64,000 nucleotides of DNA from Kitasatospora arboriphila (GTDB lineage Bacteria; Actinomycetota; Actinomycetes; Mycobacteriales; Mycobacteriaceae): contig NZ_JNYV01000012.1 of assembly GCF_000717275.1 (NCBI RefSeq), forward strand, positions 1-64,000, in the 5' to 3' direction. The translations under genes were made by a program, and so were the position numbers. Below the pieces are notes generated by a model. It did not search any database. It was not told the DNA's origin and was given only the letters and a program-made list of their open reading frames with translations. Positions 47,789 through 58,798 of the stretch are shown here, piece after piece; the first letter of the stretch is position 1; each line of letters begins with the position of its first letter.

Positions 47789-47995
47789 TTATTTGCAGTC
47801 GCACTCGGCGATTGCTTTGTTCACTTTGCGGATCACTCCGGGGCTGATGGTCTTGTGTCCGTCGGGGATGGTCATGGTGTGTCGGCCCGTCGGGCAGGCC
47901 CAAAAACCGTGGCTGCCCTTGGCATCACGCACACGCGTGAAATCGGCAGCGCGCAGTTCTTTGGTCACCTTACGAGTCGGCTGCTCCGCAATCAT
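47789..47995 (-). CDS. hicA: HicA-type mRNA interferase toxin
   Basis: A 68-residue protein with the dsRBD-like HicA fold. GSHGFWACPTGRHTMTIPDG contains the catalytic histidine of the GSH-x-F/Y motif, and ISPGVIRKVNKAI is the closing helix. HicA cuts mRNA. It is the first gene of the unit, with its promoter near 48000. Confidence 0.8.
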   Translation of the reverse strand: MIAEQPTRKVTKELRAADFTRVRDAKGSHGFWACPTGRHTMTIPDGHKTISPGVIRKVNKAIAECDCK

Positions 47996-54397: not shown

Positions 54398-54919
54398 ATG
54401 ACCCGGCACCGCGTGTTCTCACTGGCCCGCATCACTGGCCATAGTGTGTGGTGGGTCTTTATGGTGGTGACGCTCTTTGCGGGTGGCATTACTTGGACGG
54501 GTGCCAGTAGTTATGGCTACGGCTACTTCCTTGGCGCCACGTCTTTTGCTGGGTGGTCGGGGGATTGGACGGCCAACACTCCGATTCAAGCGCCGGTGGC
54601 CATTACGGATTTCGCTGCATCGTCGTCGTACCAGGACCCGTGGACGCAGTTGGAGGTGTGGTCGGTGGTGACGTTCGTGGTGGTGCTCATCGCTGCTGTG
54701 GTCGAGGCGATTGCAGTACGCCAGGTAGTGCCGGGGATCGTGACGGTCGCCGCGCCGTGCGTGGCGTTTGGACTGTTGTTGTTGGCTACCCCCGGCGTCC
54801 TCGACTCTGTCGAGTTCAGCACGATGCTCACCGTGGCTGTGGTGTTGGTTGCGGTCGCCGTCCGTGAGATTTGGGCACGCGGGTTCGCGCCGCGGCCGAG
54901 TGGCCTACAGAGACAATGA
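54398..54919 (+). CDS. Membrane protein, four helices
   Basis: A 173-residue protein with hydrophobic segments near 18-35, 85-105, 112-130 and 140-155. CTGCAACACTTG shortly before the ATG only weakly resembles the shared leader motif. It overlaps the nuclease-like lipoprotein gene by four bases, so the two are co-translated. Function unknown. Confidence 0.6.
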   Translation: MTRHRVFSLARITGHSVWWVFMVVTLFAGGITWTGASSYGYGYFLGATSFAGWSGDWTANTPIQAPVAITDFAASSSYQDPWTQLEVWSVVTFVVVLIAAVVEAIAVRQVVPGIVTVAAPCVAFGLLLLATPGVLDSVEFSTMLTVAVVLVAVAVREIWARGFAPRPSGLQRQ

Positions 54920-55506
54920 CGGTCGCGAAGCGCGGGTGGCAGCCGGCGGCGGTAGGGTGCGCGGTCCTGCTGATATTGGCCGGGTGCGGGGGTGATTGGG
55001 ATCGAACTTCGGGCTACAGCTATACCAACAGACCGCCTTCGGAGACGGTGGTTCTCGAGCGGATAGACCCTGAAGCCAAGCCCGTGGTCCAGGTTGTTTC
55101 GGGCGACACTGTGGTGGTCGATCTCGACGGGGTGGAGACGACGATCAAGATCATCGGCATCGAGGCGGCCGATGCGACGTCGTCAGACAACCGGGAACGC
55201 TGTCTGGCCAAGAAGTCGGCCGAGCACCTGAAGTCCGTTCTCCCGGAGACCGGTGTCCGAGTCCATTACCAGGACGGCCAACCTCGAACCGACGGTCAAG
55301 GGAACACTCGCGCACATCTCACTGGGCGCATGACAGCCAGCTCATCGGTGGCGGTGGAGCAACTTACGACAGGGTGGGCCAGGAGAATCTCGGACCCGGC
55401 CGACGCCATGAACCTGATCCACGATGGCATGCACATGCAGACTGACGCGGAAAATTCTGCGCGTGCAGCGCAAGTGGGGATCTGGGATCCCGATGAGTGT
55501 CGCTGA
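54916..55506 (+). CDS. Degenerate thermonuclease-like lipoprotein
   Basis: A 196-residue protein with lipobox LILAGC and a SNase-like fold (VVQVVSGDTVVVDLDGVETT, IKIIGIEAADA). The catalytic residues of the family are altered: K for R and A-A-D for the D-T-P-E part. GNTRAHLTGRM replaces the RYGR segment. It is probably inactive as a nuclease and may have a structural or binding role. The active relative is at 38427-38981. Confidence 0.65.
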   Translation: MTVAKRGWQPAAVGCAVLLILAGCGGDWDRTSGYSYTNRPPSETVVLERIDPEAKPVVQVVSGDTVVVDLDGVETTIKIIGIEAADATSSDNRERCLAKKSAEHLKSVLPETGVRVHYQDGQPRTDGQGNTRAHLTGRMTASSSVAVEQLTTGWARRISDPADAMNLIHDGMHMQTDAENSARAAQVGIWDPDECR

Positions 55507-55591: not shown

Positions 55592-56797
55592 CTAGCCAGT
55601 AGTGGCCGCCGGCTCGGACCCGCTCGGTGTCGAGGAAGGCGTGGACTTTCCAGGCGATGCTGGGCCGGCATTGTTGAGGTCGAGAATTGTTAGTGCGAGC
55701 CGCGGCGCATCGCTGACCCTGTCAGCGGGAGCAAGAAATTCTCTTGCACTCAAAGTGGCGTAGACACAAACCCATTGGTACTCGTCGCGGGACACCTGCA
55801 ATGTGACTGCCATGTCGGTAGACCCCGTTGACGTTGGTCCACTCTCACCCCAGTACAACGTGCGCGTCGTCGCACCTTCGACCTGAGTTTCAAGTTCCCC
55901 CTCGGCGTCAGGAGCGGCGCCAGCGACAACCTCGCGGCCGGGTTTTCTAGGGTTCCTGCATGCCGCTTCGATGGTGCTTGGAACTTCGGTCTTGACAGCC
56001 ATGACCCGCACGAGCATCTTGTCCCTACTTCGAAGAGAGAGACCAGAGCCCGCCACCTGTATGTTCACAAGCCGGGCGTTCTCCGAATCTGTCTGAGCAG
56101 ACACAACAATGTCGGGCTGTTCACGTTGAGCGATTGCCTCAGTGCCCCAGAATGCGACCAACAAGGCACCGGCCAGCACAAGCAGGGAACCAATGACTTC
56201 CGGCCCAATGATGTGGATGTCAGCGAGTAGTCGGGGCGTTTTCTCCGGTGCGAATCGCAACGCAGCAAAGGACAGCACGATGATCACCAGCCCGGAGATA
56301 ACAAAGGCAATAGCTACGGGCGCCGACCAGCTGAAGTCGTCCGCCCACCAGAGTCCGAAAACAAGGGCCGCTACACCCAGTATGAAGACGATGAGGGCTC
56401 TGTCGGGGGCGGAGAGACTTGCCTTGTGCTGGGCGGCGGTTCGCGCCTGCTGTGCGCGAACGGCCGCAGCTACTGCAGGGAGTGTCACTCCTATGAGAAC
56501 CAACGCAAGTGGAATAAACACGTGATTTGGTTCATCGCGAATAAACCGCGACCGCGCATCGCCTTCTAGTCCGAGGGCGATGAGGACGCCGACGATGACC
56601 GCGGTGCCAAGCGGAATGGCCATGCGCGCAGCGTCAGTGATCATCGCCCCCGTTGTCTTTGGCCCTGGCTCTGGCGGGCCTTCGGGAGCAACAGGCGGGG
56701 GCGGGCCTTGGGGAGCAACAGGCGGGGGCGGGCCTTGGGGAGCAGCAGGCGGGGGCGGGCCTTGGGGAGCGACAGGCGGGCCGGCGGGGTTGTTCAC
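55592..56797 (-). CDS. Membrane protein with proline-rich repeat N-terminus
   Basis: About 401 residues from GTG 56797, which has AAGGGAG before it. Repeats of APQGPPPPV fill residues 8-45, four membrane helices follow (about 60-230), and the C-terminal half is extracytoplasmic. The repeats are encoded by a 27-bp tandem array. Proline-rich cytoplasmic tails bind partner proteins; the partner is unknown. Confidence 0.65.
   Translation of the reverse strand: MNNPAGPPVAPQGPPPPAAPQGPPPPVAPQGPPPPVAPEGPPEPGPKTTGAMITDAARMAIPLGTAVIVGVLIALGLEGDARSRFIRDEPNHVFIPLALVLIGVTLPAVAAAVRAQQARTAAQHKASLSAPDRALIVFILGVAALVFGLWWADDFSWSAPVAIAFVISGLVIIVLSFAALRFAPEKTPRLLADIHIIGPEVIGSLLVLAGALLVAFWGTEAIAQREQPDIVVSAQTDSENARLVNIQVAGSGLSLRSRDKMLVRVMAVKTEVPSTIEAACRNPRKPGREVVAGAAPDAEGELETQVEGATTRTLYWGESGPTSTGSTDMAVTLQVSRDEYQWVCVYATLSAREFLAPADRVSDAPRLALTILDLNNAGPASPGKSTPSSTPSGSEPAATTG
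56674..56781 (-). repeat. Four 27-bp tandem repeats
   Basis: Units start at 56674, 56701, 56728 and 56755 and differ by one to three bases. Each encodes nine residues of the proline-rich tail. The repeat count is likely to vary between strains. Confidence 0.9.
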
Positions 56798-57077
56798 GGA
56801 ATGCTCCCTTCGCCTACGAACTAGGTGCACTGACTGTAGTGCTCTTGTCGGCCTGACTTTCGTGAAACTACGAATGATCCGAAGGAAAGCAAAACTAGTT
56901 AGTGCACAGCAGTATTGCGCTACCTAGGTGTCGGTTGCGCTGCGTTGAGTTGTCGCTCAGGGTCTCGGGTCCGGCGAGGGGGCTTACGCGCTCCTGCCTC
57001 GCCTCTTCATCTGTATCGACCGCGAAGCCGTGGTGATGCTGGTGGCAATGTGTCATTGCTGTCGATCTAATGGGGCA

Positions 57078-57158
57078 AGCCTGGTCCCGGTGCTCGCGGT
57101 CTAAGGGGGGTGCGAGCACCTGGATGCGACGGGGGGAGTGTCGCATTGGGACCAGGCT
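57078..57158. other. 81-base three-way-junction structure
   Basis: Three perfect stems make a clover-like form: AGCCTGGTCCC (57078-57088) with GGGACCAGGCT (57148-57158); GGTGCTCGC (57089-57097) with GCGAGCACC (57112-57120); ATGCGAC (57124-57130) with GTCGCAT (57140-57146). The two inner loops each hold six Gs. It could be a small RNA, a single-strand origin or a recombination site. Which strand is used is not known. Confidence 0.75.
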
Positions 57159-57670
57159 CGGTGGTGAACGTTAGCAGTGCGCACGGACATTCGTAATGTC
57201 ACCAGGAGGTGTTTCGACACACAGGGCACTTGAACGGTCAGCGGGTTGGGCCCGTTGGGTTGCGGTGAGGCGTGTCGTGGATGGGTGCGGAGGGCGCGTG
57301 TCCGTTGGTGGCTCGGGGGATGTCGTGGCGAGGGTGGTTCGCTGTGGCGTCGAGGACCGACGGCGGGCCTTGGGCGCGATCGTTGTCGCGTTGTTGCCGG
57401 CGTTGGGCTACCCGGGTACCGAGCTGATTGCCGGGCGGGTCGGTGGATAGTTCTTTCTGGAATCTCTTGGGCTTGCTCGACGAGGAACACTGAGGCTTGG
57501 GCGCGCTGCGTCTCGGAGGACTCTGGCCGAAGGATGAGGTCGGCGCATCGGGTTTCGGCGTGGTGGGCGAAGGAGCGGCGTCGGGTGCTGCCGGGGGGTT
57601 CTCTGTCGGCGTCGATCAGGTTCTGTCGGGCGTCATCGAGGAGGTAGGCGGGATCGTCGGGAATGCTCAC
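57101..57670 (-). CDS. Doubtful protein of 189 residues
   Basis: The first 75 residues from GTG 57670 (VSIPDDPAYLLDDARQNLID and HAETRCADLILRPESSETQR) look like protein and AAGGA precedes the start. The remaining residues are R/P/S-rich and end inside the three-way junction, so the C-terminus is doubtful or frameshifted. It lies 72 bases after the secreted-protein gene. Confidence 0.4.
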   Translation of the reverse strand: MSIPDDPAYLLDDARQNLIDADREPPGSTRRRSFAHHAETRCADLILRPESSETQRAQASVFLVEQAQEIPERTIHRPARQSARYPGSPTPATTRQRSRPRPAVGPRRHSEPPSPRHPPSHQRTRALRTHPRHASPQPNGPNPLTVQVPCVSKHLLVTLRMSVRTANVHHRAWSQCDTPPVASRCSHPP

Positions 57671-57741
57671 TGGTGGAGGTCCTTTGGTTGAATGGGTAGA
57701 GCCGCCGACACGTGGGGTGTCGGCGGCTCCAGGTCCGGGTG

Positions 57742-57987
57742 TTAGATCGTTTCGCCCCAGAAGTAGTACGCCTGCACGGGCCAGAAGTCGTGGAAACATC
57801 CCGACACCCTGATGTAGGGAGTCATCGCCGTTTGGCAAGCCTGCATCGACGGGTACGGGCCCACTTTGTAATTGGGCCAGTTGGGATCGTCGGCGTTGGC
57901 GGTGCCGCCGCCGGCTCCCACCGCGATGGTGGCAGCGGCAGCGATTGTCATTGCGCTGGCGGCGATTTTGGAGCGTATCGAGGTCAT
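57742..57987 (-). CDS. Small secreted protein
   Basis: An 81-residue protein with a signal peptide (AASAMTIAAAATIAVGAGGG, cleavage near TANA-DD) and a mature part of about 50 residues with two cysteines, rich in aromatic residues (FHDFWPVQAYYFWGE). It lies just after a TCTGCAACCA leader. It may be a surface factor in the mating region; function unknown. Confidence 0.65.
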   Translation of the reverse strand: MTSIRSKIAASAMTIAAAATIAVGAGGGTANADDPNWPNYKVGPYPSMQACQTAMTPYIRVSGCFHDFWPVQAYYFWGETI

Positions 57988-58002
57988 GGTGATCCTTGTC
58001 TT

Positions 58003-58014
58003 TGGTTGCAGAGA
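58003..58014 (-). promoter_or_regulatory. Shared leader motif TCTGCAACCA (copy 4)
   Basis: TCTCTGCAACCA on the minus strand, 15 bases before the secreted-protein ATG. A partial second copy (TTCTGCAAC) adjoins it. Confidence 0.55.
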
Positions 58015-58109
58015 GTTGCAGAAGACTGATTGCTGTATGCGATTGCTTGTGTCGAATCGTTGAATGTTGCGGCTGTGTGCCTCCTTTCGAGGTGGCCGTG
58101 CGGATCGGG

Positions 58110-58367
58110 CTAGTCCCGGTCGCTGAGGTCGTAGGTGTGCGCAGCAATGCGCAATCCGAAGGTGCTTGGCGTCGCGATGAGTTCAGCTGCTGCCTTGTCG
58201 GCGGCGGCGGGGTGCGCACCGTTGACGGGCGTGAGCACGAGATAGACCTCCCCGGCGCTGGCGGGGTGGGCGTCGACGGTCACTGTTCGCAGTTGCCTGG
58301 CGAGGCTGGCTGCCCAGTGGGCGTCGGGTTGGACGCCGATTGGTAGTGCGGCGCGCACGATCACCAT
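58110..58367 (-). CDS. Small hypothetical protein, 85 residues
   Basis: MVIVRAALPIGVQPDAHWAA opens a small alpha/beta protein, with GEVYLVLTPVNGAHPAAADK and a terminal helix. It overlaps the NrdH-like gene by seven bases. No family is recognised. Confidence 0.5.
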   Translation of the reverse strand: MVIVRAALPIGVQPDAHWAASLARQLRTVTVDAHPASAGEVYLVLTPVNGAHPAAADKAAAELIATPSTFGLRIAAHTYDLSDRD

Positions 58368-58798
58368 CTCGTGCGCCCCTGCTGGCGTTGAGCCGGTGGT
58401 GTCACCGGCTGAGTGGAGGCGGCGTGGGTGTTCTCGGGTGGCCCGACGACCAGGGATGCTGTCGTCGCCGGGACGGTGGTGGCGCGCAGCAGCTCCGACA
58501 TTGCTGCTGCGGTATCCGGCGGTGACGGTGAGGAAGAGCGCTGCTGGGCTGCTACCGCTTTGACTCTGTCCGGGCGGAACCCAGACCAGTGGTGCTCGCC
58601 GGTCACCACCACGGGCGCTTGCTGATAGCCCAAGCTCATCACGTAGTCGCGGGCCTTCGGATTGGTGGTGATGTCGACGGTCTCGTAGTCGATGCCAGCT
58701 TTGTCGAGCGCTTTGTAGGTGGCGGTGCACTGCACGCAGGCCGGTTTGCTGTACACGGTGATCGGGTCCGCGGGCTGTTGGGGCGATGGTGCGCTCAA
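58361..58798 (-). CDS. NrdH-like glutaredoxin with C-terminal tail
   Basis: A 145-residue protein. Residues 10-82 repeat the 80-residue NrdH at 34.8 kb closely (CVQC, KARDYVMSLGYQQAPVVVTG, HHWSGFRPDR). A 60-residue S/T/P-rich tail is added. It is six bases after the upstream gene. Two NrdH-like proteins on one element may support deoxynucleotide supply; the tail is of unknown role. Confidence 0.85.
   Translation of the reverse strand: MSAPSPQQPADPITVYSKPACVQCTATYKALDKAGIDYETVDITTNPKARDYVMSLGYQQAPVVVTGEHHWSGFRPDRVKAVAAQQRSSSPSPPDTAAAMSELLRATTVPATTASLVVGPPENTHAASTQPVTPPAQRQQGRTRW

What the first reader, a model, noticed from the sequence alone, without database searches (positions are those of the whole stretch)
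57078..57158. 81-base three-way junction with two G-rich loops
Three perfect stems (11, 9 and 7 bp) with almost no unpaired bases at the junction are very unlikely by chance. Both inner loops hold six Gs. No protein reading explains it; a doubtful reading frame ends inside it. It may be a regulatory RNA, a single-strand initiation site for conjugation, or a structure-specific recombination site.
Basis: seen in the sequence. Interest (0 to 1): 0.75.

Follow-up and report, generated by a model that had tools for sequence, protein, structure and literature searches.

The report
6C-like small RNA on a plasmid
The folded 81-base stretch is best read on the other strand, as a candidate small regulatory RNA resembling the actinobacterial 6C RNA, sitting behind what looks like a DNA-damage-response promoter on a plasmid-like contig.

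Summary
The structure is real and beyond chance: perfect stems of 11, 9 and 7 bp, z -7 to -9, no other such junction in 1.58 Mb of other held DNA or in 40 Markov windows. On the minus strand both loops read CCCCCC, as in actinobacterial 6C RNA; RF01066 aligns end to end, but at 22.9 bits against a cut-off of 47, so I call it 6C-like, not a member. A promoter-like site lies just upstream on that strand, two mismatches from the published PafBC (DNA-damage) consensus. The combination recurs: PafBC motif plus two C6 runs hits 4 of 401 family genomes, the own one and three of one genus, with 0 for the reversed pattern; one of these elements matches 26 Rhodococcus plasmid records, and an alignment of 12 shows compensatory stem changes. 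The window element is a separate, closed three-way form: the model of those 12 does not find it, the related plasmid lacks it, and no close homologue was found. Transcription, PafBC control and targets are inferred.

The parts
57078..57158 (-). 6C-like RNA candidate, closed three-way junction
   Evidence: Perfect stems 11/9/7 bp; - strand RNA -48.1 kcal/mol, z -8.7; RF01066 positions 1-75 at 22.9 bits, below the cut-off of 47
57148..57158 (-). P1 closing stem, 5' arm (pairs with 57078-57088)
   Evidence: structure
57078..57088 (-). P1 closing stem, 3' arm
   Evidence: structure
57124..57146 (-). First hairpin: 7-bp stem, 9-nt loop ACUCCCCCC
   Evidence: structure; C6 at 57131-57136
57089..57120 (-). 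Second hairpin: 9-bp stem, 14-nt loop ACCCCCCUUAGACC
   Evidence: structure; C6 at 57105-57110
57168..57190 (-). Candidate PafBC (RecA-NDp) promoter ATGTCCGTG-N8-TAACGT; 9 nt between the -10 box and the first stem base
   Evidence: 2 mismatches to tTGTCRgtg-8nt-TAnnnT (consensus passage in PMC5656591); listed; chance of a site this good in about 16 positions on either strand about 0.0013, an after-the-fact estimate
56895..57056 (-). Small open frame downstream (53 aa from an ATG 21 nt after the element), doubtful as a gene; possible cis target
   Evidence: its last 51 residues have no Pfam match
55592..56830 (-). Next larger gene on the same strand, 412 aa with proline-rich start; possible cis target
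   Evidence: no Pfam or NCBIfam match at E 0.001; 68% identical homologue over residues 36-412 in G119:C5

Best explanation
The minus strand encodes a small RNA of the 6C type. It starts at about 57158-57162 from a PafBC-responsive promoter and folds into two hairpins held together by an 11-bp closing stem, so that two CCCCCC loops stand out side by side. When DNA damage, or single-stranded DNA such as that arriving by conjugation, activates the host's PafBC, the RNA is made; its C-rich loops then pair with G-rich ribosome-binding regions of host or plasmid mRNAs and change their translation. Shown: the fold, the C6 loops and their strand, the promoter-like motif and its position, and the recurrence of motif plus C6 hairpins in Rhodococcus, many on plasmids. 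Inferred: transcription, PafBC control, targets and benefit to the plasmid.
For: Structure far beyond chance. Both loops carry C6 on the minus strand, and 6C is the highest-scoring Rfam family, over its full length. PafBC-like motif at the right distance on the same strand; no TANNNT box in the 47 bases before the element on the plus strand. Pattern PafBC motif + C6 + C6: 4 of 401 family genomes (own included), reversed-pattern control 0 of 401. Among 21 Rhodococcus-type elements examined, 11 have the motif with <=2 mismatches and one more with 3, each ending 5-6 nt before the model start; reversed motif 0 of 23. In 12 aligned elements 5 of 24 pairs show compensatory changes. 6C-like RNAs of two further actinobacterial assemblies (L077, L078; near-identical to each other; 33.7 bits, also under the cut-off) have the motif with 1 mismatch. 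In print: loops of 6C/B11 and a six-G tract in a 5' leader (PMC10470900); extra 6C genes on mycobacterial plasmids (PMC9569102); PafBC activated by ssDNA (PMC11804915).
Against: RF01066 score far below its cut-off (22.9 vs 47); E 0.3 over all families, and an animal microRNA family had a slightly better E of 0.22 on the other strand. Model R2 of the Rhodococcus elements does not find the element, so common descent is not shown. No close homologue seen in 401 family genomes, 72,556 plasmid records or 50,697 phage records (searches scored only the best 2 and 10 candidates per genome in most rows). The related plasmid contig G119:C5 lacks it. Chromosomal 6C copies (9 of 9 genomes of the genus) have no PafBC motif within 3 mismatches. 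The site has two mismatches and sites this good occur 10 times in the contig. 9 of the 21 Rhodococcus elements lack the motif, and at least two (L201, L215) have no C run in the second loop. No U-rich terminator follows.
Confidence: 0.6

Rival explanations
1. It is a cis-acting 5' leader: the structured RNA is the start of a longer minus-strand mRNA and controls the gene behind it.
For: In 4 of 7 Rhodococcus plasmid loci read with annotation, a CopG/ribbon-helix-helix gene starts 26-56 nt after the match end (two checked by Pfam). In the window an ATG follows 21 nt after the element. Rfam files 6C as Cis-reg.
Against: The 53-aa frame in the window has no Pfam match (last 51 residues); the next larger gene starts about 250 nt on; 3 of 7 Rhodococcus loci have no CopG gene there. 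The passages seen describe 6C/B11 acting in trans (PMC8628891; PMC10470900).
Confidence: 0.18
2. It acts as folded single-stranded DNA: initiation site for the complementary strand, a transfer-linked signal, or a recombination site.
For: The Y-shaped fold is stable as single-stranded DNA; the contig carries a relaxase and a coupling protein.
Against: Single copy and no repeated core beyond two 12-mers; absent from the related contig; a DNA-only role does not explain C6 in both loops or the promoter motif. Not tested directly.
Confidence: 0.1
3. The plus strand is transcribed; its two G6 loops act as a decoy that captures the host's 6C RNA.
For: G6 loops would be complementary to the C6 loops of the chromosomal 6C (65.7 bits).
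Against: No TANNNT box in the 47 bases before the element on the plus strand; the recurrent relatives have the motif on the C6 strand, as the pattern required.
Confidence: 0.05
4. A relic or chance stable repeat without function.
For: No close homologue; not in the related contig.
Against: Perfect stems in all three arms, and 0 comparable structures in 1.58 Mb of other held DNA and in 40 Markov windows.
Confidence: 0.07

Closest known systems
6C RNA (RF01066; B11 in mycobacteria)
   Same: Two neighbouring hairpins with a run of six C in each loop, short linker, actinobacterial host; full-length alignment to the model. One study describes a mycobacterial 6C with three helices and two C-rich loops (PMC6582537, passage).
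   Different: Score under half of the cut-off; an 11-bp perfect closing stem; a plasmid-like contig instead of the chromosomal 6C gene; a PafBC-like motif, absent from 9 of 9 chromosomal copies in the genus.
Extra 6C RNA genes on mycobacterial chromosomes and plasmids (PMC9569102)
   Same: A second 6C-type RNA besides the regular one, some on plasmids (passages).
   Different: There described as similar in secondary structure to the regular 6C; promoters and a closing stem do not appear in the passages seen. Their sequences were not compared here.
6C-like RNAs on Rhodococcus plasmids (found here)
   Same: About half with a PafBC motif, then two hairpins with C-rich loops.
   Different: No closing stem in the consensus, longer second stem, often a CopG gene behind; model R2 does not match the window element.
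PafBC-dependent (RecA-NDp) promoters
   Same: TGTCNGTG, 8-nt spacer, TANNNT -10 box.
   Different: Two mismatches (first T and the R); control by PafBC not shown.

Membership tests
6C RNA (RF01066) | Score at or above the curated cut-off (47 bits) | tested here: not met
   22.9 bits, E 0.3; nothing at gathering threshold in the window
6C RNA (RF01066) | Two adjacent hairpins, each loop with at least six C | tested here: met
   structure; descriptor
6C RNA (RF01066) | Chromosomal place of the regular 6C gene | tested here: not met
   Element lies on a contig with relaxase and coupling protein; the regular copy is G000:C2:1279235-1279307
6C RNA (RF01066) | Expressed, pairs with G-rich leaders through its loops | not testable with these tools
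   needs RNA work
PafBC-dependent promoter | tTGTCRgtg-8nt-TAnnnT just upstream of the start site | tested here: inconclusive
   2 mismatches, correct spacer and place; 10 such sites on both strands of the contig
PafBC-dependent promoter | Loss of induction in a pafBC mutant | not testable with these tools
   needs an experiment
Rhodococcus plasmid 6C-like RNAs (model R2) | Significant match to a model built from the 12 members | tested here: not met
   0 matches at E<=10 in 56000-58500
Recombination site (attC type) or transfer origin | Repeated core sites, or a nick site next to the start of the relaxase operon | tested here: inconclusive
   Single copy, no repeats beyond two 12-mers; nick sites were not looked for

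The most novel reading that the evidence does not exclude
Actinobacterial plasmids carry their own versions of the host's 6C regulator, wired to PafBC, which senses single-stranded DNA. Entry of the plasmid as single-stranded DNA would itself switch the RNA on, so that an incoming plasmid briefly reprograms translation of mRNAs with G-rich leaders in its new host, for example to slow replication or division while it establishes. The closed three-way form would be an evolved, more stable version.
Probability: 0.17. Interest if true: 0.85.

Novelty: new variant of a known kind. Interest (0 to 1): 0.6.

Why it matters
It links three things not joined in the papers I could search: 6C-type RNAs, the ssDNA-activated PafBC damage response, and plasmids. 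In Mycobacterium smegmatis overexpressed 6C inhibits growth (PMC8628891, passage), so a plasmid copy under a damage promoter would be a lever on host physiology. The Rhodococcus set (26 plasmid records) gives a tractable group for testing, including two plasmids of the well-studied strain RHA1. Whether those RNAs are annotated in the original records is not known: the plasmid collection used here lists no RNA genes.

Tried and rejected
Rfam at gathering threshold: nothing in the window, the rest of the contig or the related contig; the element itself would not pass either. DNA BLAST for the element in plasmids, phages and family genomes: only short matches, best 29 bases at E 8.9e-5. Single-sequence model R1 over 401 family genomes: the element, and 14 rows of E 0.1-5 in which I saw no pair of C6 loops. 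6C model over 22 plasmid records: two weak rows, one an ordinary terminator-like hairpin, one in repetitive sequence. Two-C-loop descriptor over loci of 2 kb or more, among them 13 of the 22 plasmids: one plasmid hit judged real (R. opacus PD630 plasmid 2) and one judged spurious. Viral contigs with promoter+C6 pattern: one chance row. Genome contigs with a narrower pattern: 6 rows, of which L077 and L078 look like 6C and four look like chance. That L077 is the usual chromosomal 6C place is my reading by eye of its ORFs, not a profile result. G6 runs before start codons as plasmid targets: 5 of 29 runs, fewer runs than the 81 of Markov sequences, none convincing; one sits in what I read as a leaderless promoter of a HicA-like gene and was dropped. 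Other rows, microRNA families included, were taken as chance. Targets in the host chromosome were not searched.

Full report
OBSERVATION. The 81 bases 57078-57158 form three perfect stems of 11, 9 and 7 bp with four unpaired bases at the junction. Each of three foldings (plus-strand RNA, minus-strand RNA, minus-strand DNA) is better than all of 200 shuffles. A descriptor scan finds no second case in the whole 120,506-base contig or in a related 136,619-base contig; a stricter one finds none in 1,576,029 bases of other held loci (overlapping pieces counted) and none in 40 Markov sequences of 64 kb.

STRAND. On the plus strand the loops hold G6; on the minus strand they hold C6. Two hairpins with C6 loops are the hallmark of 6C RNA (PMC8628891, passage). 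A lax Rfam scan of 181 bases gives 6C (RF01066) the highest score, over model positions 1-75, on the minus strand, at 22.9 bits; the cut-off is 47, E is 0.3 over all families, and an animal microRNA family has E 0.22 at a lower score. So the resemblance is architectural, not a passed membership test. The same genome has a regular 6C elsewhere, 65.7 bits, at G000:C2:1279235-1279307; 9 of 9 genomes of the genus have one over the cut-off.

PROMOTER. Just upstream on the minus strand lies ATGTCCGTG-CGCACTGC-TAACGT (57190-57168). The published consensus of the RecA-independent promoters is tTGTCRgtg - 8 nt - TannnT (PMC5656591, passage), and the PafBC motif closely resembles it (PMC8223512, passage). 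There are two mismatches. The window has 7 sites this good against 3.9 expected and the contig 10, so the motif alone is weak; its place, nine bases before the first stem base on the strand with the C6 loops, would arise by chance in about 0.0013 of cases by an after-the-fact estimate. The plus strand has no TANNNT box in the 47 bases before the element.

RECURRENCE. I searched the combination TGTCNGTG-N8-TANNNT, then two C6 runs with gaps of 20-50 bases. In 401 genomes of the family it hits the own genome and three others, all of one genus (g23); the pattern read backwards hits 0 of 401. In 394 genomes of the class it hits only the own one. Two contigs of one of the three genomes, G229, have the lengths of Rhodococcus jostii RHA1 plasmids pRHL1 and pRHL2; the other two genomes are drafts and the nature of their contigs was not tested. 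BLAST with one of these elements finds 26 plasmid records, 26 of 26 Rhodococcus; 19 of 26 alignments start early enough to span the promoter, 7 do not; there is no phage match. A scan of 13 whole plasmids with a two-C-loop descriptor found one judged real, in R. opacus PD630. Twelve elements aligned give a two-hairpin consensus with 24 pairs, 5 of which show changes on both sides that keep the pair; in one sequence a base is missing on both arms of the second stem; 8 pairs are broken or gapped in one to three sequences, and one sequence (pRZP2) lacks the C run in its second loop. A model of these (R2) finds matches at E<=0.001 in 16 of 376 family genomes, 9 of them in g23. Of 23 rows that I examined (21 of g23 and 2 others; rows without a locus and weaker rows were left out), 11 of the 21 have the PafBC motif with <=2 mismatches and one with 3, ending 5-6 bases before the element; 9 of 21 and both others lack it; the reversed motif occurs in 0 of 23. 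In at least two of the 21 (L201, L215) the second loop has no C run. RF01066 does not list the seven Rhodococcus loci L188-L194 at E<=1. Two further actinobacterial assemblies (L077, L078, near-identical) have a 6C-like RNA, 33.7 bits and so also under the cut-off, with the motif at 1 mismatch.

LIMITS. R2 does not match the window element and R1 finds no relative above noise. The related contig G119:C5, which shares the 412-aa gene (68% identity over residues 36-412) and other stretches of DNA including part of the coupling-protein gene, has no such element. The nine chromosomal 6C genes of the genus have no PafBC motif within three mismatches. So the window element could be a diverged relative or an independent arrival at the same design; the data do not decide. 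Its closing stem is not in the consensus of the relatives. That contig C12 is a plasmid is inferred from its relaxase and coupling protein; its ends do not overlap.

MECHANISM. A 5' leader with six Gs is repressed by B11, and mutating either C-rich loop alone leaves repression (PMC10470900, passage). Overexpressed 6C inhibits growth of M. smegmatis (PMC8628891, passage). In C. glutamicum 6C rises about two-fold with mitomycin C (cited in PMC6789036, passage; the primary paper is not held); the same passage says that genes raised by 6C overexpression in M. [quoted passage not shown] PafBC is activated by single-stranded DNA (PMC11804915, passages). From these I infer a damage- or ssDNA-induced RNA that alters translation through its loops. 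An alternative is a cis leader, since a CopG gene follows 26-56 bases after the match in 4 of 7 Rhodococcus loci read with annotation.

NOVELTY. Extra 6C genes on mycobacterial plasmids are in print (PMC9569102, passages). I found no paper joining plasmids, 6C and PafBC in searches. These are listings: 37 showed 20 of 149 papers and 49 showed 10 of 104; 43 returned none; of the three papers of 133 I saw passages of two. A find for 'conjugat' in PMC11804915 gave 0. The closed form, the promoter link and the Rhodococcus set appear new within those limits, hence new variant of a known kind.

Noticed in passing
L188-L194, L172-L181, L195-L224: A diverse set of 6C-like RNAs in Rhodococcus, many on plasmids, several per genome (7 rows in G289), with at least two promoter types; RF01066 did not list them at E<=1 in seven loci.
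   Followed up: partly
L189, L190, L192, L193: CopG/ribbon-helix-helix gene 26-56 nt behind the RNA; the pair may be one regulatory unit.
   Followed up: partly
L180 / L223 (G277:C710): One Rhodococcus-type element is cut in its second hairpin, as if by insertion or recombination.
   Followed up: no
L203 (G130:C28) and L209 (G081:C24): Two-hairpin elements with runs of 6-9 C in the loops in two other genera of the family, without a PafBC motif; not checked whether they are the regular 6C.
   Followed up: no
window 47792-47995 (-): Small HicA-toxin-like gene (PF07927) with the palindrome AGTCTA-GGGGGG-TAGACT just before its start, perhaps an operator.
   Followed up: partly
window 56660-56790: Tandem repeats coding for a proline-rich start of the 412-aa protein 55592-56830(-), seen by eye.
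   Followed up: no
window 54871-55506 (+): Nuclease-like protein beside the relaxase (NCBIfam thermonuclease-type matches below their cut-offs).
   Followed up: no
window 57742-57987 (-): Small protein with a secretion-signal-like start (by eye); 53% identical stretches of 49 residues on two Gordonia plasmids.
   Followed up: no
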